In this document: positions 434-21,886 of the stretch, in pieces
Numbering within the stretch: position 1 is the stretch's first letter
Layout of the letters: every line of letters begins with the position of its first letter
Assembly: GCA_000156295.1 (NCBI GenBank)
Contig: DS999224.1
Location: forward strand, 132,398 to 196,397
Length of the DNA: 64,000 nt
Origin: a marine gamma proteobacterium HTCC2148
Lineage (GTDB): Bacteria; Pseudomonadota; Gammaproteobacteria; Pseudomonadales; Halieaceae
Direction of reading: 5' to 3'
Position numbers and translations under genes: made by a program
The notes under the pieces: generated by a model
What the model was told of the DNA's origin: nothing
Databases searched by the model: none
The model's input: only the letters and a program-made list of their open reading frames with translations

Positions 434-472
434 ATGAGTGTTGGTTGCGCGGGCAGTCTGGGGTATGTCTGA
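434..472 (+). other. possible leader minicistron upstream of the GT-C-like gene
   Basis: A 12-codon ATG-to-TGA frame preceded by AGGA at 428-431. Its stop codon lies two bases before the GTG start proposed for the 449-residue membrane protein. That gene has no clear ribosome binding site of its own, so translation may be coupled by re-initiation. A sequencing or natural frameshift joining the two frames is an alternative explanation. Confidence 0.3.
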
Positions 473-474
473 CA

Positions 475-1824
475 GTGAATAAAAGAAACAAACGTTATCC
501 GCTTTTTGCAAAAGTCGGCTTTGCATATATATTTTTCTTTTCTGCCATCGTGGCTGCAAAATGGATTCTAATATTTTCTTATGGCAGTCATCTGCCCTAC
601 TGGGACCAGTGGGATGCGGAGGCGGCTTTTTTATATAGACCGTTTTTGCTCGGCGAACTCGATTTCTTAGACTTAGTGTCGACTCACAACGAACACCGAA
701 TATTTACTCAGCGTGTGTTCGCGCTGTCGTTGTTTGTGATAAATGGTGACACCTGGGATCCTATGCTGCAGATGCTATCAAATGCATTGGTGCACGCTTT
801 TTCTATGCTGATTCTTTTGCATTATCTAAAGCCTGTAGTGGCGTCGAAGTATCACAGGTATCTTTATTTTCTAATGCTTAGCATGATTCTTGTACCATTC
901 GGCTGGAAAAATATGCTGGGCGGCTTTCAAGGGCAGTTCTATTTTTTGCTTTTATTCAGTTTTGTTTTCATTCAGCTCATGGCCGAGTCCAAATTTAAGG
1001 AAATAACGTGGTGGTTAGGTCTGGTGTGTGGAATCCTTGCTGCGTTGAGTATGGCGTCGGGCGCGATAACCCTCCTTAGTGGCGTTATCGTAATACTCGC
1101 GAAGACTTTTCAAAGTCGAGTCAAAACGAAAGAGCAGGTAATTTCAGCTGCTTTGGTTTTTAGTGTTGCGATTACTGCTATCGTCTTGACACCACATGTC
1201 CCTGGACATTCGGGCTTAAAAGCCGAGGGCCCATTACAGATAATAGAGGCGGCACTCGTGGTCTTTTCCTGGCCTATGGTTCACTTTCCAGCGGCCGCAT
1301 TTGTGCTTTACGCTCCAACTACTTTATTTTGCTATCTGATTCTCTCTTCCAGAGAACTCTGCAAGACTGAATATCTGTTCTATATTGGTGCGTCCGCGTG
1401 GGTAGTCGGACAGTTACTGACTATCTCTTATGGGCGAGCCAATGCAGTTTTGTTGAGCCCTCGTTACTTTGATATTTTTGTTATAGGCGTGATTCTGAAT
1501 GCCACCGCATGCTTCGGCTTGATTTCCATCTGTAAATTACGGAAGCGTTTGGTAATTAACATGATCGTTATTTGGTCAATATCTGCTGCTATTGGGCTAT
1601 GCATTGCTGTGTTGGAGCTCCCAATTGTAATGCAGTCTAAGTCAGATATGTCTTCGGTTCAGGAAGACAATGTTAGTGGATATTTATGTACAAGCGACGT
1701 GAGCTATTTAGAGAACAAGAGAAGAATGGAAATACCTTATCCTAGTGCACCCAGATTAAAAAAATTACTAGACGACCCAACTATTGTTAAGTTTCTACCA
1801 CCACAATTATATGAGTGTGATTAA
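475..1824 (+). CDS. polytopic membrane protein, probable GT-C-like glycosyltransferase
   Basis: A protein of about 449 residues with many hydrophobic segments spread along its length and a soluble C-terminal tail of roughly 70 residues. Just after the first membrane helix lies PYWDQWDAEA, followed by STHNEHRIF. Acidic residues in the first external loop are the hallmark of GT-C enzymes, which transfer sugars from polyprenyl-phosphate carriers on the outer face of the inner membrane, so that role is inferred. The exact family is not recognised. The start is uncertain: GTG at 475 gives MNKRNKRYP, a TTG at 445 is in frame, and a 12-codon minicistron (434-472) ends two bases before the GTG. The gene is AT-rich compared with the rest of the window, suggesting acquired DNA. 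It converges on the GT-C-like gene at 1907. Confidence 0.7.
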   Translation: MNKRNKRYPLFAKVGFAYIFFFSAIVAAKWILIFSYGSHLPYWDQWDAEAAFLYRPFLLGELDFLDLVSTHNEHRIFTQRVFALSLFVINGDTWDPMLQMLSNALVHAFSMLILLHYLKPVVASKYHRYLYFLMLSMILVPFGWKNMLGGFQGQFYFLLLFSFVFIQLMAESKFKEITWWLGLVCGILAALSMASGAITLLSGVIVILAKTFQSRVKTKEQVISAALVFSVAITAIVLTPHVPGHSGLKAEGPLQIIEAALVVFSWPMVHFPAAAFVLYAPTTLFCYLILSSRELCKTEYLFYIGASAWVVGQLLTISYGRANAVLLSPRYFDIFVIGVILNATACFGLISICKLRKRLVINMIVIWSISAAIGLCIAVLELPIVMQSKSDMSSVQEDNVSGYLCTSDVSYLENKRRMEIPYPSAPRLKKLLDDPTIVKFLPPQLYECD

Positions 1825-1906: not shown

Positions 1907-3364
1907 TCATGGGCTAGCACAATGCTTCTCGTGGTAAGAAAAACTTGCGGAAAAGTAGGTGTGCAGGGTGCTTGTTGGCAAACGATGGAAATAGCCGGGA
2001 AAGGTAATTAGGTGACGGAAGCCACTAGCATTTAGTTGCTCACGATATCTCTCAGAATATTGGCTTCTATAATCTATTACCCTCACTATGCCACAGAGCG
2101 GCGTGTTCATTCTATATACCTGTCGGAAGCTTACGTTAACAGTTGGTATTCCTGAGTAATTGGCGTCAATAAATTCTCTTTCCGCTATGCTTTTCCCTTG
2201 TTGATTTAAAGATAGGTAAATAGATGCGGTTTGCTTTGCCATTGTCGCTAAGGCAAGAACCGCTGCGGCAAAAACTAAAAGCCTGTATTTCATAGTCAAT
2301 AATGTGGCAAAAGAAAAAGTTGCCAAAATATGTAAATGTGAGAAGTTTCGTTCAAAAAAAATCGGTTTAAATGAAAAATAAAAAATGTAAGCCAGGATTA
2401 GAATTGACGAGCCGACACATATTTTCATGCTTAATGAGAAGTTACATAGAGACCTCATGTCGAATAAAACAAGTAAAGGTGTCAATATCAGTAGCGGGAA
2501 GACCCAAAAAAAGAACTCTAAAATCCACGACAACTGTTTCAAATATGAATATTCAATTAGAGAATGGGGCGGATGTGAAGATGCGTACTGCGCAGACAGT
2601 TTTGTGACCGTTGCTAAAATTTTATCCGGGTTTGCAACGGCATAAGGCGCAGAGATAAAGATACCCACTAACGAGCTAAGTATCAGTAGCGCATAGAAAT
2701 GGTGTTTCTTGATATTTCTGTCGATTAGTATCAGCCATGCGGGCATAAATAGTAGCGGTAACAAGGAGAATTTGGTTGCAATGCAGGCCCCAATTACGAC
2801 TCCAGCGAGCGAGATACTTGCCTTAGGGCTTTTCTCGAATAGGCAAAGTGCAAAAAGAAGAATTGACGTAAAAAAATATAACAAGCTTTCCGGGCGTGCC
2901 TGCATATAGTCCGACATTAATGCAGGGTTACAAATGAGCAGAAGCACACCAAAAATTAGTGTCATCCACGTTGATTTTACTTGAATCATCGCAAGCCCGA
3001 ATAAGATTAAGGCCAGTGCTTGCAGTAGAAAGTTAAGATGCCTAAGTGACTTTACGGAACGCTCTGATTCAACCTGCATCCAATAGTGAGAAATTATCAT
3101 GTAAGGATAGAACTGATAGTGCATCTCTTGAAAATCAGGTATTAGTGCCGCTCTTCCCCAGTCTGGATTGTTGTCACCATTCCTTTCCATCGAAAGAGAG
3201 ACTTCAATTGGAATCCTATCGTCCATATTGAATGACTTTTCGATGTTGACAGTACGAGGTAGAATAAATCCGACAACTATTACAGCAAAAATGCAAGCAA
3301 TGGAAAATATTTTTATCGACCTTTCGGGGCCTGAACTAATTCTCGAATTGAAGAAAGTGCTCAT
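1907..3364 (-). CDS. polytopic membrane GT-C/ArnT-like glycosyltransferase, last gene of the glycan operon
   Basis: A 485-residue protein with an N-terminal membrane helix at about 20-36, an external loop with MDDRIPIEVSL at about 47-57, and then about eight further hydrophobic segments. The aspartate pair in the first loop and the overall layout fit PMT/ArnT-type GT-C transferases, which use polyprenyl-phosphate sugars as donors. It is the last gene of an operon that appears to build polyprenyl-phospho-arabinose, 15 bases after the GtrA-like gene. It is therefore the best candidate for the enzyme that transfers the pentose to a glycan, lipid or protein, as TfpW does for pilin in Pseudomonas aeruginosa. 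Substrate and acceptor are inference. The start is ATG at 3364. The DNA is AT-rich. Confidence 0.7.
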   Translation of the reverse strand: MSTFFNSRISSGPERSIKIFSIACIFAVIVVGFILPRTVNIEKSFNMDDRIPIEVSLSMERNGDNNPDWGRAALIPDFQEMHYQFYPYMIISHYWMQVESERSVKSLRHLNFLLQALALILFGLAMIQVKSTWMTLIFGVLLLICNPALMSDYMQARPESLLYFFTSILLFALCLFEKSPKASISLAGVVIGACIATKFSLLPLLFMPAWLILIDRNIKKHHFYALLILSSLVGIFISAPYAVANPDKILATVTKLSAQYASSHPPHSLIEYSYLKQLSWILEFFFWVFPLLILTPLLVLFDMRSLCNFSLSMKICVGSSILILAYIFYFSFKPIFFERNFSHLHILATFSFATLLTMKYRLLVFAAAVLALATMAKQTASIYLSLNQQGKSIAEREFIDANYSGIPTVNVSFRQVYRMNTPLCGIVRVIDYRSQYSERYREQLNASGFRHLITFPGYFHRLPTSTLHTYFSASFSYHEKHCASP

Positions 3365-3379
3365 GTTAAAAGTGTCTAT

Positions 3380-3802
3380 TCATAATTCTTCAGTCGCTGA
3401 ATTATCTTTAAACGCAAAAAATTTATATAGCAAGAAAGTGGCAAGCATGGGTAATGCTAGGGAAAAAGCATGAGCTATTTCCTCAACATACTTTTTAAGT
3501 CCAAGTAATTCAAATAACATTGCAAAAGCGATTGCTCCGGCCCATACAAGAGGTACAAAACTCAAGTTTATCGCTATAAACCGTTTAGCCTGAGTTTTAA
3601 TTGGAATAACCGAATGGGGAAAAATAAATAACCTATTCAGTGCAAATGCCGTCGCCATACCTACGCCATAAGCAATCGGAACAGCAGCGTAAAACTCAAT
3701 CCAATCAGAAATCATATACCGCACGACCCAGTTCACGCTCGCCGCTGTTATACCGACGAACAGAAAACCAATAAACTGTTTAGTAAAGAAACTCTTCAGC
3801 AC
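3380..3802 (-). CDS. GtrA family membrane protein
   Basis: A 140-residue protein with four predicted membrane helices and the GtrA family pattern: FLFVGITAASVNW near the N-terminus, ALNRLFIF after helix 2 and a C-terminal LYKFFAF. GtrA proteins are thought to flip or help deliver polyprenyl-phosphate sugars, or to act as accessories of the membrane transferase. The mycobacterial GtrA relative Rv3789 sits beside dprE1 and dprE2, as this one sits in an operon with their homologues. The GTG start at 3802 overlaps the end of the FAD oxidoreductase gene by 7 bases, which indicates translational coupling. The family is clear; the exact role here is inferred. Confidence 0.85.
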   Translation of the reverse strand: MLKSFFTKQFIGFLFVGITAASVNWVVRYMISDWIEFYAAVPIAYGVGMATAFALNRLFIFPHSVIPIKTQAKRFIAINLSFVPLVWAGAIAFAMLFELLGLKKYVEEIAHAFSLALPMLATFLLYKFFAFKDNSATEEL

Positions 3803-5088
3803 GTGTCAATCATCTTGGCCATGGCACGCCCGAAATCGATACTTTCTGAAATTCCGCGGTCCTCGGGATAGTAGTATGAGGTGTCGGCGATGAATAGCCC
3901 CTGCACCGGGAGTTTTACCGGCGGTAGCTTGCCTAGGAAGCCTGGTTCACAAATTGGCTGGGCAAACCGATAACGGCTGGCGCGTATATCAAGAAAATCC
4001 TCGTTACTTAAATCGGGATTAATTTTCATTAGGTAGGTTTTGACTTTTTCGATAAATACTTCATCCCGCTCTAGGTACTTGGGATGTTCTCCGGGTAGAT
4101 AGAAAGGGACATAAACAATTGCGTTGCCCAGCGGCCTCAGGTTGCTGTATTCAACCAAGCCTGGAATATCCATTTCATCGTCATTGGTATTAATCCAAAA
4201 GTTGCCACTCAGAGGCTTGCTAAGCTTAGCGATCACGCAGACAACTGCAATGTTGTTCACCGATCTGTACTTATCTAGAATATCATCAGGAAGATCAGGA
4301 AAAACTCGAGGAATATAAGGTAGCGGGATTGTACTGATCACTTTGCTAAAGTGATGCTGGCCGCCTTCAGTTTCAACTCCAGTGATTTGCGAATCTTGCA
4401 TCAAAACGCGTTTTACGGGCTCACCTAGGTGGAGCTCAGCATCGTTTTCTTCTAGAAAAAACTGCAACGCGTCTAATAATGTCTGTGATCCGCCGTCCAG
4501 ATAACCCAATTTTTCTTTGAATAGATTATATCGCGAACGACCTAATCTCCGGATGCGGCTCCATATCCAGGCTGCCGAGAGATTTCCTGTGAAGTGATGA
4601 AATTTGTATTCAAAAAGCTTCCGCCACATGACTTCATAGACGTCCTCACCTACCCATTTTTTTATCCAAGCGGTAGCTTCAACATCGTCCAGGCTCTTCC
4701 AGTCTTTGCGTTTGGTGGCGAAAAATGCCATAAGCCCATAACGTATTTTGCCAATCAACGAGAGTCCGCTAAAGCGTAGAAGGGCAATGGGGTTTCCCCA
4801 CGGCTGCAGTTTGTTGTTAAACCAATAGCCCATTCGGGTCTCGGTCCAGTTCATGCGGTCTGCAATACCAAGCTCTTCTAAAAGAGTCAGAAAGCCAGTG
4901 TCAGACGTACAGTGGAAGTGATAGTAACGTTCAATTTGTAACCCGGAAAAATCGAAACATGCGGTCATTCCTCCAACACGGTCATCTGCTTCGAAGATAA
5001 CGGGTTGGTAGCCGTCAAGTATCAGTTGGTATGCAACGGCTAGGCCCATGGGCCCGGCCCCCAGCACTGCTATACGTTCTTTAGCCAT
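3796..5088 (-). CDS. NAD(P)/FAD-dependent oxidoreductase, amine-oxidase/protoporphyrinogen-oxidase-like
   Basis: A 430-residue flavoprotein. The N-terminus carries the dinucleotide-binding signature VLGAGPMGLAVAYQL and then FEADDRVGGM, typical of the flavin-containing amine oxidase / phytoene desaturase / UDP-galactopyranose mutase superfamily. A C-terminal FAD segment lies at GLFIADTSYYYPEDRGISESI. Members of this group recur in surface-glycan clusters beside GtrA and GT2 genes, but their substrate is not established. Here it may act on a lipid-linked or nucleotide sugar. The start is ATG at 5088, because the upstream epimerase stop (5090-5088) overlaps it in a TGATG junction; the TTG one codon earlier is not needed. 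It overlaps the GtrA gene downstream. Confidence 0.8.
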   Translation of the reverse strand: MAKERIAVLGAGPMGLAVAYQLILDGYQPVIFEADDRVGGMTACFDFSGLQIERYYHFHCTSDTGFLTLLEELGIADRMNWTETRMGYWFNNKLQPWGNPIALLRFSGLSLIGKIRYGLMAFFATKRKDWKSLDDVEATAWIKKWVGEDVYEVMWRKLFEYKFHHFTGNLSAAWIWSRIRRLGRSRYNLFKEKLGYLDGGSQTLLDALQFFLEENDAELHLGEPVKRVLMQDSQITGVETEGGQHHFSKVISTIPLPYIPRVFPDLPDDILDKYRSVNNIAVVCVIAKLSKPLSGNFWINTNDDEMDIPGLVEYSNLRPLGNAIVYVPFYLPGEHPKYLERDEVFIEKVKTYLMKINPDLSNEDFLDIRASRYRFAQPICEPGFLGKLPPVKLPVQGLFIADTSYYYPEDRGISESIDFGRAMAKMIDTC

Positions 5089-6026
5089 CAAAATTCCAGT
5101 ACGACTTTGCTGTATTCAGGGTGGGCAAAGGTTTCATCAAGCGCATCTTGCAGCGGCGTACTAGGCACGCCGAAAATGTCTGGCCAGTCAATAACTTCAA
5201 AGTCATCTTTTGCTGTCAAGGCGGCAAGTTGCTCTGTAGTAAAAGGAGGATCGCTGTCAAAAATGGCCCAAATCGATAGTAAGGAGTAAAACAGTGAATA
5301 CGGGATCTTTAGAATAATGGCGCTGGCACTCGTGGCTCTCTTCACCGCCTGTATCAGGTCGATGTAGTCGATACGCTCTTGCCCGGATATGTTGTATGTG
5401 CCATTTAGGCTGTGGTTTTCGACACAACTAATGATGATATTGCTGAAATCCCCAGCGTAGAGTGGCTGTCGCATATAGCGGCCATGACCGGGTATCGGAA
5501 AAACAGGCACCTTCTTCATAAAGCGCGAAAGCCAGCCAATATGTTTCCGGTCGAACCAGCCAAACATGAGTGTCGGTCGCAGTATAGGGCAAGGTATTCC
5601 GCTATCAAGAACCATCTTTTCTTGGCGCTTTTTGCTTTTTGTATACATATCGTCGGCAACTGACTCGACTACTGATGAGCTAATGTGAACCGTTCGCGGG
5701 ACACCATATCGTCTTATCGCTTGAAGAATATTCTCTGTCGCTGTCTCGTTATTGAGAGCAAATTCATCCGCTTTCAAGCCACCGATCTGCGCCTGCAGAA
5801 TGACTACCGCGTGCGCCCCCTCAAAATGTCGCACCCAGTCGCCGGTTCGGGCGAGGTCAGCCAATTCGCATGTTACGTCTGGATGCAATTTGGCCAAAAC
5901 TTCAAGATTATGTTGATGCTTGTCGACGACAACTAGGTCTGTATAGCCCCTCGCCTTGAGGCGCGGTATAAGGTTTTGACCCACTAGACCAGCACCTCCC
6001 GGGAGAACAATTTTTTGGGAGTTCAT
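5088..6026 (-). CDS. NAD-dependent epimerase/dehydratase family protein
   Basis: A 312-residue extended short-chain dehydrogenase. The Rossmann glycine motif is GGAGLVGQNL near residue 10. A serine run (HISSSVVE) precedes a YTKSK sequence that fits the YxxxK catalytic pair, and PILRPTLMFGW matches the substrate-binding region of NDP-sugar epimerases. The substrate cannot be read from the sequence; an NDP-sugar or a lipid-linked sugar is likely given the neighbours. A longer frame reaches 6089, but the ATG at 6026 overlaps the stop of the preceding reductase gene in an ATGA junction and directly precedes the glycine motif, so it is preferred. The gene lies between the DprE2-like reductase and the FAD oxidoreductase, two positions absent from the mycobacterial set. 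Confidence 0.82.
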   Translation of the reverse strand: MNSQKIVLPGGAGLVGQNLIPRLKARGYTDLVVVDKHQHNLEVLAKLHPDVTCELADLARTGDWVRHFEGAHAVVILQAQIGGLKADEFALNNETATENILQAIRRYGVPRTVHISSSVVESVADDMYTKSKKRQEKMVLDSGIPCPILRPTLMFGWFDRKHIGWLSRFMKKVPVFPIPGHGRYMRQPLYAGDFSNIIISCVENHSLNGTYNISGQERIDYIDLIQAVKRATSASAIILKIPYSLFYSLLSIWAIFDSDPPFTTEQLAALTAKDDFEVIDWPDIFGVPSTPLQDALDETFAHPEYSKVVLEF

Positions 6027-6766
6027 ATGTCCATCCGATTGAATATAAATCGTGGAAGGTGACGAATGATCATCATAATGATCAGCCATTTACCTGGGGC
6101 ATAGACTACCGGCCGTTCTTTTGCCATGCCGTTGACGATTGTCTGCGCTACGGCAGTCACGTCTGCCATTTTAGGACCTTCGTCACTAAGATGGGCTGTC
6201 ATAGGAGTCTGGGTCGGCCCGGGTTTGACTAAAGTGATAACAACATCTGTGCCAGCAAAGCGGTGCTGTAGTCCCTGAGCGTACCGCGTCAATAATCCCT
6301 TGGCGGCACCATATATGTAGTTGGATTTTCTACCGCGGTCACCTGCTACTGAGCCAATTATTCCTATTTGCCCCCTGCCTGAGATAGACATCTTGTTGGC
6401 GAACGCCTCGGCGAAGAGAGCTGGAGAAATGCCGTTGACGCTCAGTTCATTGGCACTTCTGGCCAAATCATTCTGGCAGGCTTCCTGGTCGGGGAGAGAG
6501 CCATGCGCAATGAGCACGCAATCTACATCGCCTGCCTGGCAAATTTCGCGAACAATGTCTTCGATAGAGCTGGGAGTGACAAGGTCTCCCTCGATTATTC
6601 GAATCACTGAGCCGGGGCTTCTCACCCTTAGGTCCTGCACTACCGACTCTGCGCGCTCTTTATTTCTGGCAACCAGGGTCAGGTCCAGATCTTCTTTAGT
6701 GAGCCAAATTCGCGCGCAATGCTCCGCGATTGCAGAGGTGGCACCAACGATTGCATAACGTTTCAT
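6023..6766 (-). CDS. DprE2-like short-chain reductase (decaprenylphosphoryl-keto-ribose reductase family)
   Basis: A 247-residue classical short-chain dehydrogenase. The cofactor motif is GATSAIAEHCA near the N-terminus. The catalytic residues are the serine in IIGSVAGDRG and the pair in YIYGAAKG (YxxxK). In mycobacteria DprE2 uses NADH to reduce the 2'-keto intermediate made by DprE1, completing epimerisation of polyprenyl-phosphoribose to polyprenyl-phosphoarabinose at the cytoplasmic membrane. The call rests on SDR family features plus its place 7 bases after a recognisable DprE1-like gene; the two normally work as a pair. The ATG at 6766 is the only good start. The stop overlaps the following epimerase gene by 4 bases. 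Confidence 0.82.
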   Translation of the reverse strand: MKRYAIVGATSAIAEHCARIWLTKEDLDLTLVARNKERAESVVQDLRVRSPGSVIRIIEGDLVTPSSIEDIVREICQAGDVDCVLIAHGSLPDQEACQNDLARSANELSVNGISPALFAEAFANKMSISGRGQIGIIGSVAGDRGRKSNYIYGAAKGLLTRYAQGLQHRFAGTDVVITLVKPGPTQTPMTAHLSDEGPKMADVTAVAQTIVNGMAKERPVVYAPGKWLIIMMIIRHLPRFIFNRMDI

Positions 6767-6773
6767 AAATTAG

Positions 6774-8066
6774 TTACCACCCCATTAAACGGCGTGAAAG
6801 ACCGGAACTGATGCCTGGGTCGCGATAAGCTGTGAATTGACTGAGATTTGGGTATCCGTTAGTAAATAGGTCTTCAGGCATTCTGGCGTCTTTTGCGGGA
6901 TAAAGACGCCCTTTGGCTTCTTTGACAATGGCATCCAGTCGATCGAATAATTGCGATGTCTTCTTCCCTCGGTTGGGAAAGTCCAAGGCAAGGGTCACAC
7001 CTTCCAGGGGAAAACTCAACAAACCGGGGGAAGGTTTATTACCAAAGGTTTTAAGTACTGAGAGAAACGACCCCTGGCCAGATGTAGAGATCTCATCAAG
7101 AACTGCATCAATAGCGGGCTGACCGGCCTGACGAGGAATAACCAGCTGGTATTGATAAAAGCCACGAGGGCCATACATCCGATTCCAGTTTAAAATGCCG
7201 TCCAGTGGGTAGAAGTAGGATTGGTAATGGCTCTTGTTCATGCCGCGCTTTGTTTTGTGGGCGTAGAAATACGCTTGATTAAAAGCAGATACGCTCAGAC
7301 CATTTACCAGCGAAAATGGCGGGACAAAGGGTATGCCCAATTTACGGCCGGCTGGCAAGGTTTCACCGGGAATCTCGCTGTGATTGGCCCGAATGAAAAT
7401 GCCTCGCTTGTGCTTGTTAGAGCTGCAATCTATCCAGGAGACTGTGTACTCCCAGTTCGCCTCAGACTCTTCACTCAGCTGGAAAAACTCGCTTAGGTTC
7501 GAAAAGAATAAAGTTTCTGTATCGAGCCAGCTTGATTCAATAGGTTTGAGGTTAATCGATAGCTGCTTTATTACACCTGTGAGCCCAAGCCCACCTGCAG
7601 TGGCTTCAAACCAGCCGCTTTTCTCGGAAGGCGAGCAGGTGATCAGTTCGCCATCTGTACGCTCAAGTTTAAGCCAGTTGACATGGCTGCTGAAGCAGCC
7701 CTGCGAGTGGTGATTCTTGCCATGGACATCATTGGCTAGCGCTCCGGCCATGGTGACATATTGTGTGCCTGGGGTGACAGGCAGCATCCAGCCTTTTGGT
7801 GCAAATATGCGCTGGATATCACCGAGTAAAACGCCTGCTTCGCATACCAGTTCGCCTGACACAGGGTTAAAACTGAGAAACCTATCGAGATCACGTGTGA
7901 AGAGCAGGTTGCCGACTGGGTTGAGGCATACATCGCCGTAGCTCCGGCCCATACCATGCGCTAATATTTTCTTGTCCGGGTGCTCGATGTGAAGTGAAGA
8001 TGCCCGAGACAACGGGATATAGGGATGCTCCTCTTCGCTCAGTCTTCCCCAGGAACGCAACTTCAC
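6774..8066 (-). CDS. DprE1-like FAD-dependent oxidase (decaprenylphosphoryl-ribose 2'-oxidase family)
   Basis: A 430-residue flavoenzyme of the vanillyl-alcohol-oxidase/FAD-binding-4 type. It shows HGMGRSYGD (about 37-45), the flavin-contact motif NDVHGKNHHS (about 113-121), and C-terminal LSFPLEGVTLALDFP and RLYPAKDAR. The last two match regions of mycobacterial DprE1 that hold the benzothiazinone-target cysteine and the active-site lysine. DprE1 oxidises the 2'-hydroxyl of polyprenyl-phosphoribose. Here the lysine is kept (about residue 392), but the cysteine position appears to be alanine (about residue 360). The GTG at 8066 is chosen because it overlaps the upstream TGA in a GTGA junction; the frame upstream of it, in the UbiA gene, is cysteine/tryptophan-rich and unlike the family. 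Confidence 0.88.
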   Translation of the reverse strand: MKLRSWGRLSEEEHPYIPLSRASSLHIEHPDKKILAHGMGRSYGDVCLNPVGNLLFTRDLDRFLSFNPVSGELVCEAGVLLGDIQRIFAPKGWMLPVTPGTQYVTMAGALANDVHGKNHHSQGCFSSHVNWLKLERTDGELITCSPSEKSGWFEATAGGLGLTGVIKQLSINLKPIESSWLDTETLFFSNLSEFFQLSEESEANWEYTVSWIDCSSNKHKRGIFIRANHSEIPGETLPAGRKLGIPFVPPFSLVNGLSVSAFNQAYFYAHKTKRGMNKSHYQSYFYPLDGILNWNRMYGPRGFYQYQLVIPRQAGQPAIDAVLDEISTSGQGSFLSVLKTFGNKPSPGLLSFPLEGVTLALDFPNRGKKTSQLFDRLDAIVKEAKGRLYPAKDARMPEDLFTNGYPNLSQFTAYRDPGISSGLSRRLMGW

Positions 8067-9499
8067 AGATTGAATCCAGTTGTTCCAATAACAACCACAG
8101 CACCAAAAATGAGGCCACACGCTAAGCTCACCTTATCGGTTACAGCAAATACGACGGGATCATCATGCATTTCACCTCGGTGCGCCTTCAGCCATATCCA
8201 GCTGACCCAGAACAGCACTACTGCAACGGCTCCCCATACCATTTCGGGAAGCCTGTACAGCTGCTCACTGGCTGAACTGTCAATATATAAGGCGAGTACA
8301 AGCACCGAAACAAATCCGGCCGCTACCCCTAGCATCTGTATAAATGGCATATCATTATGCGAGTATCCGCGGCCATGAAGGTTTTGTTTGCCACTCTTTT
8401 CCGTTAGCTCCTGTAATTCAACGAATCGTTTAACAAAGGCCAGAGAAAGAAAGAGAAAGACAGAAAAAGCCAGCAGCCAAAATGACACACCTAGTGATAT
8501 CGCTGCAGCGCCCGCAATGACTCTGAGCGTATACAGACCGGCCAGCACCAAGCAGTCAAGCAGAACAATCCTTTTGAAAACAACGGAATAAGCGCAAGTG
8601 AGGCAATAATATATCAGCAGCGTCATCGCGAAAGCAGGACTGACCAATAAAGCTATCGCGGCGCTGGCAAGCAGCAAGGCAGGTGCAAGTATAATGCCGG
8701 AGGCGATCGAGGCCTTGCCCGATGCGAAAGCCCTGTTGCATTTGCGAGGATGTTGACGGTCGCTCTCAAGGTCGAGTAAATCATTGGCGATGTAAACAGA
8801 GGAAGAGCACAGGCTGAAGGAAATAAATGCCAGAGCAAGCGTAAAAATGATGCTGGGGTCGGTGATTTGATGGGCGGCGACTGCGGGTATGAACAACAAC
8901 AGGTTTTTCGCCCATTGGTGCACCCTCAAAAGTTTGGGAAAGTCTGCAAGTGCTGCCTTGGGCGCTTGGAATTGCTTCTCAACAGGGCAAAGAAGTCTGG
9001 CGGACTCTACCAGCGATTGGGAGTTGCTAACTAGCACTGCGCTTTGTGCTCCTTCCCAGACCTGCAGGTCAGCTTCTGTGTCACCGACGTAGCTGAAACC
9101 ATCATCGGGGAATAGTGCCCCCAGTGCCTCGCGCTTGGCGGTGCCTTTCATGTTAATCTTGCCACCGCTTGCCAGAGATCGTTCAAAAATACCGAGATGC
9201 TCCGACACGTCATTGGCAATTTGCTGGTCGGCTGCTGTGCATAGCAGCAGTTTGCGACCTGCAGTACGCTGCTCTTCCAACCACCCGATCAATTCTCGAT
9301 TATAAGGAAGAGACGCAGGATCAGGCTTAGCCAATGCGCTTAACTTTTGTTTAAAATGCGCTTTCCCCTGTAACAGCCAAAATGGAAGCGCAAACAGAGA
9401 CAGTGGATGCTTCCTCACTAGCAGGAGCAGCGACTCATGAAGCGTGTCGGTGTGAACAAGCGTGCCGTCTAGGTCAACGGCGATTGGGGTATTTTCCAT
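8063..9499 (-). CDS. HAD phosphatase-UbiA prenyltransferase fusion, probable polyprenyl-phosphate phosphoribosyltransferase
   Basis: A 478-residue two-domain protein. Residues 1-170 form a HAD-type phosphatase, with the nucleophile motif VDLDGTL at about 8-14, LLCTAAD at about 86-92 and VGDTEAD at about 138-144. Residues 180-478 form a UbiA membrane domain, with the metal-binding motif NDLLDLESD at about 239-247 and a second region DCLVLAGLYTLR. Mycobacterial Rv3806c, a UbiA protein, joins phosphoribosyl pyrophosphate to decaprenyl phosphate, and a separate enzyme must remove the 5-phosphate. The fused HAD domain could do that step here. This is the first gene of the operon and overlaps the DprE1-like gene by 4 bases. 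The frame extends to 9652, but the ATG at 9499 directly precedes the HAD motif. Confidence 0.85.
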   Translation of the reverse strand: MENTPIAVDLDGTLVHTDTLHESLLLLVRKHPLSLFALPFWLLQGKAHFKQKLSALAKPDPASLPYNRELIGWLEEQRTAGRKLLLCTAADQQIANDVSEHLGIFERSLASGGKINMKGTAKREALGALFPDDGFSYVGDTEADLQVWEGAQSAVLVSNSQSLVESARLLCPVEKQFQAPKAALADFPKLLRVHQWAKNLLLFIPAVAAHQITDPSIIFTLALAFISFSLCSSSVYIANDLLDLESDRQHPRKCNRAFASGKASIASGIILAPALLLASAAIALLVSPAFAMTLLIYYCLTCAYSVVFKRIVLLDCLVLAGLYTLRVIAGAAAISLGVSFWLLAFSVFLFLSLAFVKRFVELQELTEKSGKQNLHGRGYSHNDMPFIQMLGVAAGFVSVLVLALYIDSSASEQLYRLPEMVWGAVAVVLFWVSWIWLKAHRGEMHDDPVVFAVTDKVSLACGLIFGAVVVIGTTGFNL

Positions 9500-9657: not shown

Positions 9658-10620
9658 TTGAAAAATCAGAATCAATTTAGGCGCAAACTTGGCTTTGCTG
9701 CTTTTAGTTTGCTGTTTCTGACGGTGCTCTATTTTTTTGGGTTCATGTGGCTTGAATTTGATAGCAACCATAAGGCTTCAGGCTTCGCCTTGCTTGGCCA
9801 GACGCTTCCTTTGGCTGCAGTGATCATATTTATTTCATTTCTTCTGAGGTATGCTCGCTGGCATGGCCTTATAAATAAAGCTGGTTATTCGGTTCGCATA
9901 AGTGAAGGACTGTTGGCATACCTGGCAGGGTTCGCTTTTACCGCGTCACCCGGAAAGGCAGGTGAGCTAGTTCGATGCCGCTATTTTTCCGCCTTTGGTG
10001 TGCCTGTCAGAACAACATTTGCAGCCTTTTTGTACGAACGTTCCATGGATCTATTAGTGGTTTTAGCCTTGTCTGCTTTAGCCTTGTGGGCGAGTAGCCT
10101 TTTTATTCCGGCGGCGGCATTTGTCTTGTTGGTTCTGGGAATACTAATTGCGATAGCTCGCTGGGGCCATTGGATCGAAAAGAGAGGGATTCTAGGGCAA
10201 GAATCGATCATATTGTCGGCCTCTCGTTTTATCCGGGGAGGGGTAGATGATTGCAGAGTTTGGCTCAATCCATCCGATCTTTTGGTTAGTGCCGCAATGG
10301 GTATCATGGCCTGGTCCTTGGTGTGCGCAGCCTTTATTTGGGTATTAAGCTTTCTCGGCATAATGTTGCCACTTAGTCTGTCGTTCTCTCTTTACCCGAT
10401 GGCAATGCTGGCAGGTGCGGCCTCCATGATTCCTGGCGGAATAGGTACAACTGAAGCTGCGATTGTTTTACTGCTCAGTTCGGCAGGGGTTTCGATAGAG
10501 CAAGCCGCTCTGGCAGCGCTTGGTATTCGCGTTGCCACGCTGTGGTTTGCAATGGTTTGTGGGTTGGTGAGCGTGTTCATACTCGAACTGCGTAATGGAA
10601 AGACAACAACCAGCATTTAA
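9658..10620 (+). CDS. LPG-synthase-TM/flippase-like integral membrane protein
   Basis: A 320-residue protein with about eight hydrophobic segments and the pattern of the lysylphosphatidylglycerol synthase TM (UPF0104, AglD-like) family: a conserved region around AFTASPGKAGELVR, an FLYERSMDLL segment, and MIPGGIGTTEAAI near the C-terminus. These proteins are regarded as probable flippases for lipid-linked substrates. It is transcribed divergently from the arabinose-type operon, so it may move the lipid-linked product or a related lipid across the inner membrane; that role is inference. The start is TTG at 9658 with AGGA about 10 bases upstream. An in-frame TAG at 9643-9645 rules out a much longer N-terminus. 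The DNA is still AT-richer than the rfb genes that follow. Confidence 0.78.
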   Translation: MKNQNQFRRKLGFAAFSLLFLTVLYFFGFMWLEFDSNHKASGFALLGQTLPLAAVIIFISFLLRYARWHGLINKAGYSVRISEGLLAYLAGFAFTASPGKAGELVRCRYFSAFGVPVRTTFAAFLYERSMDLLVVLALSALALWASSLFIPAAAFVLLVLGILIAIARWGHWIEKRGILGQESIILSASRFIRGGVDDCRVWLNPSDLLVSAAMGIMAWSLVCAAFIWVLSFLGIMLPLSLSFSLYPMAMLAGAASMIPGGIGTTEAAIVLLLSSAGVSIEQAALAALGIRVATLWFAMVCGLVSVFILELRNGKTTTSI

Positions 10621-10713: not shown

Positions 10714-11631
10714 ATGAGCTATACAGCGCCCAGTTCAGCCTATAAAGGCATCATCCTCGCCGGGGGGTCTGGCAGTCGCCTGCATCCGCTGACCAGCACC
10801 GTATCCAAGCAGTTAATGCCGATTTACGACAAACCGATGATCTATTACCCCCTGGCCACCCTGATGCTGGCGGGGATTCGGGACATTCTGGTGATCACCA
10901 CCCCCCGTGACCAGACGGCCTTTGCCGACCTGTTGGGCGATGGCTCGCGTTGGGGCATCAGCATCAGTTACGCGGTACAGCCCAGCCCGGATGGCCTGGC
11001 TCAGGCATTCATACTGGGCGAAGACTTCATTGGCACCGACAGGGTCTCCCTGGTGCTGGGGGACAACATCTTCTACGGCGGCGGTTTTACCGTAAAACTG
11101 CAAAGCGCAGCCCAGCGCGAGTCCGGTGCCTCGGTGTTTGCCTACTACGTGCAGGATCCGGAGCGCTACGGCGTGGTCTCCTTCGATGCCGATGGGGTAG
11201 CCCGGGATATTGAGGAAAAACCGGAGAAGCCGAAGTCTCATTACGCAGTCACCGGCCTGTACTTCTACGACAACGATGTCGTGGATGTGGCCAAATCGAT
11301 CCAGCCCTCGCCCCGCGGTGAGCTGGAAATTACCGACGTCAACAAGGTTTACATGGAGCGCGGCAAACTCAACGTGGAAGTCATGAGCCGCGGCAGCGCC
11401 TGGCTGGATACCGGTACCCACAATTCACTGCTGGATGCCGCCAACTTTGTGCGAGTGGTGGAAGAGCGCCAGGGACTGAAGATCGCCTGCCCCGAAGAAG
11501 TGGCCTTCCGCATGGGCTACATCAGCGCCGAGCAATTGCTGGCTCTGGCTGCCCCCCTGGAAAAGAGTGGTTACGGACTCTATCTCAAGGGCTTGCTCAA
11601 TGATGATGGGGTAGTCTTCCATGAAGTTTGA
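10714..11631 (+). CDS. rfbA: glucose-1-phosphate thymidylyltransferase
   Basis: A 305-residue cytoplasmic enzyme that joins glucose-1-phosphate to dTTP, making dTDP-glucose, the first step of dTDP-L-rhamnose and related deoxysugar synthesis. The nucleotidyltransferase signature [14 protein letters not shown] lies near residue 15, followed by [16 protein letters not shown], the metal/substrate region [13 protein letters not shown], and [20 protein letters not shown]. The length fits RmlA. The ATG at 10714 follows a good promoter. It overlaps rfbC by 11 bases, so the two are co-translated. Base composition shifts here to the GC-richer style of the rest of the window. Confidence 0.96.
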
Positions 11632-12169
11632 GGCCACCCCGCTGCAAGGGGTATACCTGCTGACGCCAAAGGTATTTGGCGATGAGCGCGGGTTTTTCAT
11701 GGAGAGCTGGAACGCAACTACCTTCGCCAACGAAGGCTTCGACATGCACTTTGTGCAGGACAACCACAGCCGCTCGGCCAAAGGTATTCTGCGCGGCCTG
11801 CACTACCAGACCGAGCATACCCAGGGCAAGCTGGTGCGGGTCACGGCAGGCGCAGTGTTTGACGTGGCGGTAGACATGCGCCGAGACTCGCCAACCCTGG
11901 GCCAATGGTATGGCGTCACCCTGAGCGCCGAGAATCACCAGATGTTGTGGGTGCCCGCAGGCTTTGCCCACGGCTTCTATGTGCTCACCGATGTCGCTGA
12001 CTTCCAGTACAAGTGTACCGAGGTCTACCACCCAGCAAGTGAGATAGCCCTGGCCTGGGACGATCCCCAGGTGGGGATTAAATGGCCAGTGCCAGCAGGC
12101 CAGCAGCCGCAGCTATCGGGCAAAGATAAAGAGGGTCTGGCCTTTAACGAGGCGCCGTTGCTGGATTGA
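11621..12169 (+). CDS. rfbC: dTDP-4-dehydrorhamnose 3,5-epimerase
   Basis: A 182-residue cupin-fold enzyme that epimerises C3 and C5 of dTDP-4-keto-6-deoxyglucose. The family motifs are [33 protein letters not shown] (with the catalytic histidine in GLHYQ), the aspartate in [14 protein letters not shown] and [13 protein letters not shown]. The ATG lies inside the end of rfbA. Its TGA at 12167-12169 abuts, without a single spare base, the stop codon of the convergent rfbB gene. The final reductase gene rfbD is not in the window, so the end product is either completed elsewhere or is another deoxysugar. Confidence 0.95.
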
Positions 12170-13231
12170 TTAAAGCAGCGGCCGCCACCAGTCCTCGTTT
12201 GCCAGGTACCAATCCAGGGTTTTGCCCAGCCCGGTCTCGAAAGTCTCCGCCGGCTGATAGCCCAGTTCATTGCTGATCTTGGTGGCATCAATGGCATAGC
12301 GCCAGTCGTGACCCGCCCGGTCTTCCACAAAGGTAATCAAATCCCTGGCACTGCCGCCACTGGCACAGGGCGAATCGGGGAATCGTTGCGCCAGGCTGGT
12401 ATCGGCTGCAAAGCGCGCATCCATCTGTTCACACAATAGATGCACTATATCCAGGTTGTTCCATTCGTTGTTGCCGCCAATGTTATAGGTCTCCCCCACC
12501 ACACCGTCTAGCAGGACTTTCTCAATACCCCGGCAGTGATCAGCTACATACAGCCAGTCACGGATATTGCTGCCGTCCCCGTATACCGGCAGAGGTAAGC
12601 CCCGCAGGATATTGGTCAGGCACAGGGGAACCAGCTTTTCCGGAAAGTGATACGGTCCGTAATTGTTGGAGCAGTTACTGGTAGTCACCTGCAGGCCATA
12701 GGTATGAAGGTACGCACGCACCAAATGATCTGAGGCCGCCTTACTCGCCGAATAGGGCGAGTTAGGCTCGTATTTCTGTTCTTCATAAAAGCCCGGCGCA
12801 TCAGGCGTTAACGAACCGTACACCTCATCGGTGGACACATGATGGAAGCGATGTGGCCGCGGCGAATCGCCACCAAGCCAATGCTCCCTGGCCGCCTTCA
12901 ACAGACTGTGCGTGCCAACAACATTGGTTTCGATGAAGGCATCCGGGCCGGTGATTGAGCGATCCACATGGCTCTCGGCGGCAAAGTGGACCAGAGTATC
13001 GACTGAGTGCTCGCGCAATGTCGCCAGCACGGTGTCGTAATCACAAATATCCGCATGCACAAAAGAAAAGCCGTCTGTGCCCTCCAGCGAGGCCAGGTTG
13101 GCTCGGTTGCCAGCATAGGTGAGGGCATCGAAGGCGACAATACGATCATCGGGATATTGGCTGCGCCAGTAATGCACAAAGTTGGCGCCAATAAAACCGG
13201 CTGCGCCGGTTACGAGTATACTTTTCGACAA
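12170..13231 (-). CDS. rfbB: dTDP-glucose 4,6-dehydratase
   Basis: A 353-residue NAD-dependent extended SDR enzyme that turns dTDP-glucose into dTDP-4-keto-6-deoxyglucose. It shows the cofactor motif VTGAAGFIGANFVHYW at the N-terminus, HFAAESHVDRSI, the HVSTDEVYGSL catalytic segment, YSASKAASDHLV (YxxxK) and NCSNNYGPYHFPEKL, all typical of RmlB. It lies tail-to-tail with rfbC rather than in the usual rfbBDAC order. The region upstream (13232-13290), before the DUF2304 gene on the same strand, is short and shows no clear terminator, so read-through from the apaH-GT operon is possible. Confidence 0.95.
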   Translation of the reverse strand: MSKSILVTGAAGFIGANFVHYWRSQYPDDRIVAFDALTYAGNRANLASLEGTDGFSFVHADICDYDTVLATLREHSVDTLVHFAAESHVDRSITGPDAFIETNVVGTHSLLKAAREHWLGGDSPRPHRFHHVSTDEVYGSLTPDAPGFYEEQKYEPNSPYSASKAASDHLVRAYLHTYGLQVTTSNCSNNYGPYHFPEKLVPLCLTNILRGLPLPVYGDGSNIRDWLYVADHCRGIEKVLLDGVVGETYNIGGNNEWNNLDIVHLLCEQMDARFAADTSLAQRFPDSPCASGGSARDLITFVEDRAGHDWRYAIDATKISNELGYQPAETFETGLGKTLDWYLANEDWWRPLL

Positions 13232-13290
13232 CGCTAGTGGTTCCGTATGTGGTTTTTTGAGGGTCTAACTGGCGAAAAAGAAGGTTGTCA

Positions 13291-13683
13291 TCACTGGTTC
13301 TTGGTGCCTGAATTAAGCCGCTGTTCATTTGAGGCAGTATTTTCTTTTCGGCTTTTTGATCTCATTTCAGCTTCCAGCATCGCTAATCTCTGTATCAATC
13401 GCTGGTTTCGTAATTCGATTCGAGAGCGCTCTATATCCATCAAGAGAATTTTGATTACTAGTATCGCAATCGCTAACGTTAAGGCGAGTATGGGGGGAGA
13501 AGCGATGCCGAGAAAAGCCGAAAATTTGTCGAAAAGGCTAGGTACGAAGCCCAGTAGCGTAAAAGCCACAGCAACAATAGTCCAGCCTAGACCGTGACTT
13601 ACATGGAGCTTGTCTTTGCGCATTAGCAATATGATCGAAAATGCTACTAGAAGTCCAATGCACCCGGTGACTAAAGAAGCCAT
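13291..13683 (-). CDS. DUF2304 family membrane protein
   Basis: A 130-residue protein with three hydrophobic segments in the first 90 residues, followed by a charged, probably coiled-coil tail (RIELRNQRLIQRLAMLEAEM). This is the layout of DUF2304 proteins, which are usually encoded directly after a dolichol-phosphate-mannose-synthase-like GT2, as here, and are thought to help that enzyme or anchor it. The frame extends to 13758, but the ATG at 13683 shares one base with the GT2 stop codon (TGATG), so it is the coupled start. It is the last gene of the rsmA-apaG-apaH-GT4-GT2 run. Confidence 0.75.
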   Translation of the reverse strand: MASLVTGCIGLLVAFSIILLMRKDKLHVSHGLGWTIVAVAFTLLGFVPSLFDKFSAFLGIASPPILALTLAIAILVIKILLMDIERSRIELRNQRLIQRLAMLEAEMRSKSRKENTASNEQRLNSGTKNQ

Positions 13684-16449: not shown

Positions 16450-16453
16450 GGCG

Positions 16454-17654: not shown

Positions 17655-17699
17655 GCCGCCATTGTACCTGCTGTTGTGTTCATTACTACTGTTGCAGGA

Positions 17700-17724: not shown

Positions 17725-17777
17725 CTTTAAATTGCGACAATTTAGAAATCACACACTTTTAGAAGCCCGCCTATTCA

Positions 17778-18554
17778 ATGACTGTCTCTCAGTACTTTCG
17801 CCTTATCAACATCCATGCCCGGATGTTACTTAAAGTGGATGCTAATACGTTCAAACTTGGGTTCCTGTGGTGGTTCCTTGAACCGCTGATGTGGGTGGGT
17901 GTGTTCTATGTGGTTTTTAACCTGATTCTGGACTCTCGCAAGGGCGGCGACTTCATGGTTTTTCTGACCTGCGGCAAATTTGCTTTTATATGGTTCTCTA
18001 AAACTGTGATTCAGGCGTCTGGCAGTATTGTTGCCAGCAAGGGCCTGGTTGGCAAAATCAATATCCCCAAGTCTGTCTGGCCGATGTCGGCGATTCAGGA
18101 GAGTCTTTACCGGCAGTCTTCGGTTTATTTGCTGTTGTTTGTGATCCTGGCTTTTTTTGGAATCTACCCAGATATCACCTGGCTCTGGCTGGTACCCGTA
18201 TTATTTGTAATGTACCTGATGATTGTGGCGGTTGGTTTGGCGGGGGCCTATATGGTGTGCGTAGTGCGCGATTTTCAGAAATTCATCACTCTGGGTATGA
18301 CTTTTCTGCTGTTCACTTCGGGGATATTCTGGGACGTGCGCGACGTGGGCAGTGAGGAAAAAACGCAGTTCTTGCTGGCGATAAATCCTCTCGCCTTTAT
18401 GCTGGATGCACATCGCCAGATATTAATGCATGACACTGCGCCTGCGGTGCTGCACCTGTTGCTGATCGGAGTAGGTGCTTCAATATTGATAGGGCTGATG
18501 CTTTTACTGATGCGTCGCTACAATCATTATCTCGCCTTAAAGGTGATCACATGA
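17778..18554 (+). CDS. ABC-2 type polysaccharide/polyol phosphate exporter permease (Wzm-like)
   Basis: A 258-residue permease with about six membrane helices. The N-terminus (FRLINIHARMLLKVDANTF) and the FLWWFLEPLMWVGVFY segment are typical of the Wzm/KpsM/TagG group, which moves undecaprenyl- or lipid-linked polysaccharide across the inner membrane. It overlaps the partner ATPase gene in an ATGA junction, so the two form one exporter. The gene reads away from rsmA and is part of the block inserted between pdxA and rsmA. The exported glycan is probably assembled by the glycosyltransferases of this locus; that link is inference. Confidence 0.9.
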   Translation: MTVSQYFRLINIHARMLLKVDANTFKLGFLWWFLEPLMWVGVFYVVFNLILDSRKGGDFMVFLTCGKFAFIWFSKTVIQASGSIVASKGLVGKINIPKSVWPMSAIQESLYRQSSVYLLLFVILAFFGIYPDITWLWLVPVLFVMYLMIVAVGLAGAYMVCVVRDFQKFITLGMTFLLFTSGIFWDVRDVGSEEKTQFLLAINPLAFMLDAHRQILMHDTAPAVLHLLLIGVGASILIGLMLLLMRRYNHYLALKVIT

Positions 18555-19318
18555 CAGCAGGGTCTGACAGAAAATTGATGTTGGAGCTCAAGCATGTGTC
18601 TTTGGATTATCACTCCAGTAAGGGCACATTTGACCATGGTGTACACCATGTGCTGAATGATGTTTCTTTCAAACTCTATGAAAACGAAACACTAGGTATT
18701 ATTGGCCGTAACGGTGTAGGCAAAACCACTAGCTTGCGCATAATGGCCGACATTCTTGCGCCAACACGCGGTGACATTATTACTCGTCGAGGAGCAACTG
18801 CGTCCTTGCTTACGCTGGGTCTAGGGTTTCGACCCGACCTCAGCGGTCGCGACAATGCGATGCTCTCTGCGGTGCTGCAGGGAGCATCAGAACGAGAGGC
18901 CATCGGTTTTCTCGAAGAGATTAAGGGTTTCTCCGAACTTGGTGATTCCTTTGAAGAACCGGTAAAAACCTACTCTTCCGGCATGCGGTCGCGGTTGGGT
19001 TTTACCACCGCACTAATGACCCACGTGGATATATTGCTAATCGATGAGGTGTTAAGCGTTGGCGATGCCCAATTCAAAGCGAAGGCCGAGCAAGCCATGA
19101 AAGAGAGGATTTGTGGTGAGCAAACGGTTGTTTTTGTATCTCACTCCGATTCCCAGGTGCAAAACCTCTGCGACAGGGTGATTTGGCTCGATAAGGGCAG
19201 TATTGCGGCACAGGGCGATCCTGAAACGGTGATTGCCCAGTACAGGGAATCGATACGCACTCAGACTCGAGCGAATAAAAAAAGACTTGCTGATGTCAGC
19301 ACTGACTTAAAGGCCTAG
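18551..19318 (+). CDS. ABC polysaccharide exporter ATP-binding protein (Wzt-like)
   Basis: A 255-residue ATPase. Walker A is IIGRNGVGKTT, the signature region is YSSGMRSRLGF, and Walker B is ILLIDEVLSVGD, followed by the H-loop VFVSHS. The sequence GLGFRPDLSGRDNAML between Walker A and the signature is characteristic of Wzt/KpsT/TagH proteins. There is no long C-terminal carbohydrate-binding domain of the kind that reads modified chain ends in some Wzt proteins, so export probably does not depend on terminal-residue recognition by this subunit. Its TAG stop overlaps the stop of the convergent 851-residue gene within a shared CTAG. Confidence 0.92.
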   Translation: MTAGSDRKLMLELKHVSLDYHSSKGTFDHGVHHVLNDVSFKLYENETLGIIGRNGVGKTTSLRIMADILAPTRGDIITRRGATASLLTLGLGFRPDLSGRDNAMLSAVLQGASEREAIGFLEEIKGFSELGDSFEEPVKTYSSGMRSRLGFTTALMTHVDILLIDEVLSVGDAQFKAKAEQAMKERICGEQTVVFVSHSDSQVQNLCDRVIWLDKGSIAAQGDPETVIAQYRESIRTQTRANKKRLADVSTDLKA

Positions 19319-21870: not shown

Positions 21871-21886
21871 TTCCTGTTGTGTCCTT

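What the first reader, a model, noticed from the sequence alone, without database searches (positions are those of the whole stretch)
1907..9499. Mycobacterial-type polyprenyl-phospho-arabinose pathway in a gammaproteobacterial glycan operon
Seven minus-strand genes, joined by overlaps or gaps of at most 15 bases, encode UbiA-type phosphoribosyltransferase, DprE1-like oxidase, DprE2-like reductase, an epimerase, an FAD oxidoreductase, GtrA and a GT-C-like protein. UbiA, DprE1, DprE2 and GtrA are the mycobacterial set (Rv3806c, Rv3790, Rv3791, Rv3789) that makes and uses decaprenyl-phosphoarabinose. The motifs are visible in each protein. The operon therefore probably makes a lipid-linked pentofuranose and hands it to a membrane transferase for a surface glycan or glycoprotein, as in arabinosylated Pseudomonas pilin.
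Basis: partly seen in the sequence, partly recalled or inferred. Interest (0 to 1): 0.75.

Follow-up and report, generated by a model that had tools for sequence, protein, structure and literature searches.

The report
Lipid-linked pentose operon with extra epimerase
A bacterium carries a gene set that builds a five-carbon sugar on a membrane lipid, much as the tuberculosis bacterium does, together with two further enzymes that travel with this gene set across proteobacteria and probably turn the sugar into a different one before it is added to the cell surface.

Summary
Seven minus-strand genes (1907-9499) overlap or lie at most 15 bp apart, and the families named are real: HAD-UbiA phosphoribosyltransferase fusion, DprE1, DprE2, GtrA. 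Such pathways are in print (three-component pentofuranose systems, PMC11127046), so the core is a new member of a known kind.

Both are tied to DprE1. In 369 class genomes EPI is in 13, the FAD orthologue in the same 13, and all 13 have DprE1 (in 70 of 369). In a Burkholderiales sample 6 of 6 EPI genomes have DprE1 (26 of 240). The order HAD-UbiA/DprE1/DprE2/(membrane protein)/EPI/FAD/GtrA recurs in Alpha-, Beta- and Gammaproteobacteria. But 57 of the 70 DprE1 genomes have neither EPI nor FAD, so plain arabinofuranose should not need them.

Best reading: undP-ribofuranose becomes undP-arabinofuranose, which EPI and FAD convert to another lipid-linked pentose (L-xylopyranose and D-lyxofuranose are untested candidates); GtrA flips it and a GT-C-like protein adds it to a surface glycan, likelier O-polysaccharide than pilin. 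The final sugar is inferred, not shown.

The parts
8063..9499 (-). HAD phosphatase - UbiA polyprenyl-phosphate phosphoribosyltransferase fusion (PPPRS with N-terminal PRP-like domain)
   Evidence: PRK08238 642.9 bits, cut-off 351; 8j8j decaprenyl-phosphate phosphoribosyltransferase 4.3e-24 with the NDxxDxExDRxHPxK stretch conserved; DxDGT seen in the sequence
6774..8066 (-). DprE1-like FAD oxidase (ORF listed as 6774-8120; likely GTG start at 8066)
   Evidence: NF053785 6.7e-94, below its cut-off; DprE1 structures about 1e-60, HGKNHHS and LYxAKDxR stretches conserved; GTGA overlap
6023..6766 (-). DprE2-like SDR reductase
   Evidence: NF053786 2.5e-46, below cut-off; 21gq_C DprE2 1.6e-27 best solved structure
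5088..6026 (-). EPI: extended SDR, putative sugar epimerase, conserved partner of DprE1 (ORF listed as 5088-6089)
   Evidence: PF01370 8.9e-17; glycine-rich motif, S-S-S and YxxxK invariant in 41 rows; model pLDDT 83.4, epimerase/NDUFA9 fold; co-occurrence
3796..5088 (-). FAD: PRK07233 flavoenzyme, partner of EPI (ORF listed as 3796-5091)
   Evidence: PRK07233 542.3 bits, cut-off 252; same 13 of 369 genomes as EPI; model pLDDT 89.8; phytoene desaturase / PPO / UGM fold class
3380..3802 (-). GtrA family membrane protein, putative flippase of the lipid-linked sugar
   Evidence: PF04138 3.9e-10; GtrA match in 74 of 80 EPI loci
1907..3364 (-). multi-span membrane protein, possible GT-C transferase of no known family
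   Evidence: no family match; about 9 hydrophobic spans; 15 bases after gtrA; no relative among the ORFs compared
445..1824 (+). second possible GT-C transferase (WDQW ... HNEHR), convergent with the operon
   Evidence: two close relatives lie between dprE2 and EPI in L155 and L161 (34-36% identity; profile of the two 9e-91); only a weak match (1.5e-4) to the 36-member main cluster of proteins in that slot
9658..10620 (+). divergent LPG_synthase_TM / flippase-like membrane protein
   Evidence: PF03706 3.1e-38; homologue in 18 of 80 EPI loci
10714..13231 (.). RmlA-, RmlC-, RmlB-like genes of the surrounding glycan locus
   Evidence: my reading of the translations, no family search; used as queries, with matches in 10, 8 and 16 of 80 loci
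17778..19318 (+). ABC-2 permease and ATPase, likely polysaccharide exporter (Wzm/Wzt-like)
   Evidence: PF01061 6.8e-08, PF00005 4.7e-19

Best explanation
The operon makes a lipid-linked pentose other than plain arabinofuranose for addition to a surface polysaccharide. [quoted passage not shown] (2) DprE1 oxidises C2 and DprE2 reduces it, giving undP-D-arabinofuranose; (3) EPI and the FAD enzyme together convert this to a further lipid-linked pentose; (4) GtrA brings it across the membrane; (5) a GT-C-like protein (1907-3364 and/or 445-1824) adds it to the O-chain. The families of steps 1, 2 and 4 are shown by profile matches; their activities are inferred from characterised relatives. Step 3's involvement is inferred from co-occurrence and operon order; its product is unknown. 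Step 5's enzyme and acceptor are inferred from the locus.
For: Families of each protein. Published prototype: PPPRS+PRP, flippase, GT-C, with DprE1/E2 where Araf is added and an SDR where Xylf is added. EPI in 13 of 369 class genomes, all 13 with DprE1 (70 of 369); FAD orthologues in the same 13 (chance of 12 of 12 others 8e-10, relatedness ignored). In 9 of the 12 DprE1 lies in the same held stretch. Second sample: Burkholderiales, 6 of 240 with EPI (one, G774, only 37% identical), all 6 with DprE1 (26 of 240) on the same contig within 6 kb; without the seed genome, 5 of 5, 8.5e-6. Named loci: a match (E 1e-4 or better) to FAD in 78, GtrA 74, DprE2 70, DprE1 67, HAD-UbiA 64 of 80; of the 13 without DprE1 in the stretch held, 11 were searched whole and 11 of 11 have it; the other two end at DprE2. 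Same six genes in a row on four annotated plasmids. 57 of 70 DprE1 genomes have neither EPI nor FAD. Distant FAD homologues lie in sugar loci beside GtrB-like or SDR genes.
Against: Nothing shows the substrate of EPI or FAD. In 3 of 12 class genomes EPI is not near DprE1 (other contig in two, about 1.3 Mb away in one), though that last DprE1 locus (L088) keeps a 77-bit EPI fragment after DprE2. DprE1 and DprE2 scores are below NCBIfam's equivalog cut-offs. The two membrane proteins match no GT-C family. The 80 named loci were the best of at least 520 relatives, not a random sample. FAD's nearest solved folds are phytoene desaturase and protoporphyrinogen oxidase, which do not act on sugars. 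GtrA is not exclusive to EPI loci: L245 has HAD-UbiA, DprE1, DprE2 and GtrA without EPI. A GalU-like gene (my reading) lies after GtrA in 5 of 12 class EPI loci, which could point to a nucleotide sugar.
Confidence: 0.6

Rival explanations
1. The end product is plain undP-D-arabinofuranose; EPI, FAD and GtrA serve a second sugar used in the same glycan and merely travel in the same gene cassette.
For: EPI-FAD-GtrA lies apart from UbiA-DprE1-DprE2 in some genomes (L089 of G341, L098 of G402), so it is a module of its own; a GalU-like gene follows GtrA in 5 of 12 class EPI loci; distant FAD-type enzymes occur in loci without a DprE1 match.
Against: Every EPI genome examined whole has DprE1 (13 of 13, 6 of 6, 11 of 11), which an independent sugar would not require; the four annotated plasmid operons list no further lipid-sugar synthase next to the six genes. 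The 80 loci were not screened for such a synthase; the most frequent ORF family after GtrA besides the flippase-like one looks like a methyltransferase (6 loci, my reading).
Confidence: 0.25
2. EPI and FAD modify the polyprenyl carrier (for example its reduction state) rather than the sugar.
Confidence: 0.08
3. The acceptor is a pilin or another glycoprotein, as in Pseudomonas paraeruginosa, rather than the O-polysaccharide. (This rival concerns the acceptor only and can be true together with steps 1-4 of the best explanation.)
For: The published P. paraeruginosa D-Araf genes (PSPA7_6245-6251) glycosylate type IV pili and lie far from the pilin gene by their locus numbers, so absence of a pilin nearby proves little.
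Against: Rml-like genes, glycosyltransferases and an ABC-2 exporter pair surround the operon.
Confidence: 0.2

Closest known systems
Three-component pentofuranose systems (Citrobacter youngae O1/O2; Kelly et al. 2024, PMC11127046)
   Same: PPPRS with N-terminal HAD phosphatase, flippase, GT-C enzyme, auxiliary epimerase(s), in a surface-glycan locus.
   Different: GtrA instead of a MATE flippase; DprE1/E2 plus a further SDR and a PRK07233 flavoenzyme; transferases not assignable to GT136 here.
Mycobacterial decaprenyl-phospho-arabinose pathway (Rv3806c, DprE1, DprE2, Rv3789)
   Different: Phosphatase is a fused HAD domain, not Rv3807c; EPI and FAD have no place in that pathway as described in PMC11127046; acceptor differs.
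Pseudomonas paraeruginosa D-Araf pilin glycosylation (PSPA7_6245-6251, TfpW; PMC12369383)
   Same: D-Araf genes including ubiA in a gammaproteobacterium.
   Different: The word epimerase does not occur in that paper's text; pilin acceptor; I could not compare sequences.
UDP-galactopyranose mutase (Glf)
   Different: Ranks below phytoene desaturase and PPO; no sequence membership shown.

Membership tests
Three-component pentofuranose system | polyprenyl-phosphate phosphoribosyltransferase with HAD phosphatase | tested here: met
   PRK08238 642.9 bits over cut-off 351; 8j8j match and conserved motif; HAD Pfam match alone is under its cut-off
Three-component pentofuranose system | flippase gene in the operon | tested here: met
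   GtrA PF04138 above cut-off; the prototype uses a MATE protein, so the type differs; flippase activity untested
Three-component pentofuranose system | GT-C transferase (GT136 in the prototype) | tested here: inconclusive
   1907-3364 and 445-1824 match no Pfam, NCBIfam or PHROGs family; about 9 and 7 hydrophobic spans
Three-component pentofuranose system | pentofuranose added to a glycan after polymerisation | not testable with these tools
   needs sugar analysis
DprE1 | equivalog score and conserved stretches | tested here: inconclusive
   6.7e-94 but 315.6 of 500 bits; nine best solved structures all DprE1, HGKNHHS and AKD stretches conserved
DprE2 | equivalog score; SDR motifs | tested here: inconclusive
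   158.4 of 250 bits; PRK07102 scores higher, 233.1 of 267; best structure DprE2
PRK07233 flavoenzyme | score above curated cut-off over full length | tested here: met
   542.3 bits, cut-off 252, residues 6-429
UDP-galactopyranose mutase | fold and catalytic residues | tested here: inconclusive
Xylf epimerase ORF13 of C. youngae O2 | sequence relationship to EPI | not tested
   ORF13's sequence was in no collection I reached; in the 6 Enterobacterales HAD-UbiA loci without DprE1 (L240-L244, L246) no called ORF matched EPI, RmlB or DprE2 at 1e-4, so no stand-in was found

The most novel reading that the evidence does not exclude
The six-gene cassette is an undescribed route to lipid-linked L-xylopyranose: ribofuranose from PRPP is inverted at C2 (DprE1/DprE2) to D-arabinofuranose, the FAD enzyme acts as a mutase-like ring changer to arabinopyranose, and EPI inverts C4, which turns D-arabino into L-xylo. 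Three activities for exactly three changes. If FAD is instead an oxidase that works with EPI at C3, the product would be D-lyxofuranose; PMC11127046 says Lyxf occurs in no solved carbohydrate structure.
Probability: 0.25. Interest if true: 0.82.

Novelty: new variant of a known kind. Interest (0 to 1): 0.55.

Why it matters
Two enzymes of unknown function are tied to the DprE1 pathway (a tuberculosis drug target) in many environmental and plant-associated proteobacteria. If they convert lipid-linked arabinose to another pentose, this adds a branch to pentose chemistry on polyprenyl phosphate and gives a gene marker for rare pentoses in surface glycans. The claim is directly testable with two purified proteins and synthetic farnesyl-phospho-pentoses, a donor type already used in PMC11127046 (farnesyl-P-Xylf).

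Tried and rejected
Rejected: that the operon is a chance ORF array (families and order recur in dozens of loci). Rejected: that DprE1 always comes with EPI/FAD (57 of 70 class DprE1 genomes have neither). Rejected: that the WDxW...HNEHR motif marks the transferase generally; the pattern is in 7 of 59 proteins from the slot between dprE2 and EPI, in 8 of 80 named loci, and in 0 of 69 class/relative loci. Led nowhere: paper searches for lyxofuranose in bacterial glycans; the one bacterial case opened is a branched L-lyxofuranose (dihydrohydroxystreptose) in a Coxiella LPS (PMC9503072, one passage), another sugar than plain D-Lyxf. Searches for L-xylose together with LPS or this gene set gave listings; of these I opened passages of PMC10450222 (beta-L-xylose in the minor, branched repeating unit of a Ralstonia solanacearum O-chain, all residues pyranose) and PMC12409901 (nothing relevant). 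Whether that strain has the cassette was not checked. L-xylose in Xanthomonas and Stenotrophomonas O-chains is recalled, from no call. ORF13 of C. youngae could not be obtained; an Enterobacterales search for a stand-in gave none. Fold lists do not exclude families absent from them.

Dropped or limited rows: of 69 other class genomes with DprE1, neighbourhoods were fetched for 57; 12 were not. One search counts 69 stretches: 12 with EPI (above 250 bits), 57 with DprE1 and no EPI in the stretch; these 57 are 45 from class genomes without EPI, 3 (L088, L091, L097) from genomes whose EPI lies elsewhere, and 9 from relatives whose whole genomes were not searched for EPI. In the 57, no FAD above 250 bits and no GtrA by tblastn; tblastn misses GtrA easily (7 of 12 EPI loci found; two more by ORF blastp). 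The DprE1 tree (FastTree) kept 125 rows; its EPI label is by stretch, so the three loci just named count as without EPI, and its EPI rows come mostly from a search biased to EPI. The genome search scored at most 5 to 9 candidates a genome for EPI.
Full report
What is there. Seven minus-strand genes from 9499 down to 1907 form one operon-like block with overlaps of 1-7 bases and gaps of 7 and 15 bases. Two listed ORF starts are too long: DprE1 most likely begins at the GTG at 8066 and EPI at the ATG at 6026, both in four-base overlaps with the preceding stop, and relatives align from about there. The genes are a HAD-UbiA fusion, DprE1, DprE2, an extended SDR (EPI), a PRK07233 flavoenzyme (FAD), GtrA and an unclassified membrane protein. 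The DprE1 and DprE2 matches are strong in E-value but under NCBIfam's equivalog cut-offs. Against solved structures DprE1 retains the HGKNHHS and LYxAKDxR stretches, and the UbiA part retains NDxxDxExDRxHPxK. At the place of the cysteine that benzothiazinones hit in M. tuberculosis DprE1 (recalled) the window has alanine.

The known part. Kelly et al. 2024 (PMC11127046; abstract, passages, section 11 and the first part of section 12 read) describe a polyprenyl phosphoribose synthase with a HAD phosphatase domain, a flippase and a GT-C transferase that add pentofuranoses to O-polysaccharides in the periplasm. They state that candidate systems for Araf-containing glycans have DprE1/E2 homologues, that an SDR (ORF13) changes Ribf to Xylf, and that Lyxf, which would need both C2 and C3 inverted, is in no solved structure. 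P. paraeruginosa makes D-Araf for its pilins with genes PSPA7_6245-6251 (PMC12369383, passages). The HAD-UbiA-DprE1-DprE2 part of the window is therefore a new member of a known kind.

Distribution. The operon is accessory: of 58 genomes (the window's own, 7 congeners, 50 others), 0 of 7 congeners have a DprE1 match better than 2e-10, while 9 of 50 others have one at 1e-118 or better. Across the class DprE1 is in 70 of 369 genomes. EPI is in 13 of 369, the weakest at 7e-94 and nothing else down to 1e-20; FAD orthologues (8e-136 or better) are in the same 13; four further genomes, none of them with DprE1, have only distant FAD homologues. All 13 are among the 70. Without the window's genome, 12 of 12 against 69 of 368 has a chance probability of 8e-10 (relatedness ignored, but the 13 are in 13 genera). 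In a Burkholderiales sample EPI is in 6 of 240 (five at 51-68% identity, one at 37%) and DprE1 in 26 of 240, all 6 included and adjacent; the sample was centred on a genome known to have both.

Order. In 80 named loci found with an EPI profile (best of at least 520 relatives) window proteins matched at 1e-4 or better as follows: FAD 78, GtrA 74, DprE2 70, DprE1 67, HAD-UbiA 64. The usual order is HAD-UbiA, DprE1, DprE2, a large membrane protein or none, EPI, FAD, GtrA. Of 69 loci with EPI downstream of DprE2, 27 have under 500 bases between the matches and 42 over 1500. Thirteen lack DprE1 in the stretch held; 11 were searched as whole genomes and 11 of 11 have it. Annotated plasmids of Burkholderia stagnalis, Rhizobium tumorigenes, a Rhodobacteraceae strain and Agrobacterium salinitolerans show the same six genes in a row. 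On a DprE1 tree of 125 rows the EPI label needs 11 changes against 40.4 in shuffles (0 of 500 as low), with at least 6 forced, so the pair was gained or lost several times yet is clustered. The window lies in a starred set of 48 rows, 44 with EPI in the stretch.

EPI and FAD are not needed for DprE1 as such: 57 of the 70 class DprE1 genomes have neither. In three class genomes EPI lies away from DprE1, and one of these (L088) keeps an EPI fragment behind DprE2. GtrA mostly goes with EPI but L245 has it in a DprE1 locus without EPI.

Candidate products (established sugar chemistry, applied by me). From D-arabino, inversion at C4 gives L-xylo and inversion at C3 gives D-lyxo. C4 carries the ring oxygen in a furanose, so C4 inversion needs a ring change first, which a mutase-like flavoenzyme could supply. 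beta-L-xylose is a side residue present in only part of the repeats of a Ralstonia solanacearum O-chain, in pyranose form (PMC10450222, passages), which is how a post-polymerisation addition looks; no gene link was tested. These are hypotheses.

Setting and acceptor. Rml-like genes, glycosyltransferases and an ABC-2 permease/ATPase pair lie at 10714-19318, next to genes matching metallophosphatase (apaH-like), rRNA dimethylase, PdxA, SurA and LptD families. This is an O-antigen-like locus. The transferase is uncertain: 1907-3364 has no relative among the ORFs compared, while 445-1824 has two close relatives in the slot between dprE2 and EPI.

Verdict. Real, mostly a known pathway; the conserved EPI-FAD extension is what I found no account of, in the listings and the passages of the papers opened, all from an open-licence library.

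Noticed in passing
window 445-1824: Plus-strand membrane protein with WDQW...HNEHR, related to proteins found inside this operon elsewhere (L155, L161); perhaps a better candidate transferase than 1907-3364.
   Followed up: partly
window 19315-23704: An 851-residue multi-span membrane protein and a 605-residue protein without hydrophobic spans, both without a Pfam match, beside an ABC-2 exporter pair.
   Followed up: no
window 6774-8066: The residue at the benzothiazinone-target cysteine of mycobacterial DprE1 (recalled) aligns with alanine here.
   Followed up: no
L218, L219, L220, L221: Distant PRK07233 homologues sit in sugar loci beside GtrB-like or SDR genes; in L218 the two ORFs overlap. 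This flavoenzyme class may act on polyprenyl-phospho-sugars in general.
   Followed up: partly
L240, L241, L242, L243 (Enterobacterales sample, HAD-UbiA without DprE1): A 122-133-residue membrane protein that reads as SMR-like lies beside HAD-UbiA, a possible third kind of flippase besides MATE and GtrA.
   Followed up: no
L142, L148, L149, L183, L197, L198: An ORF of about 220-250 residues after GtrA reads as a class I methyltransferase; the added sugar may be methylated in these strains.
   Followed up: no
L088 (G341): An EPI fragment of 77 bits follows DprE2 although the genome's full EPI-FAD-GtrA set lies about 1.3 Mb away.
   Followed up: no
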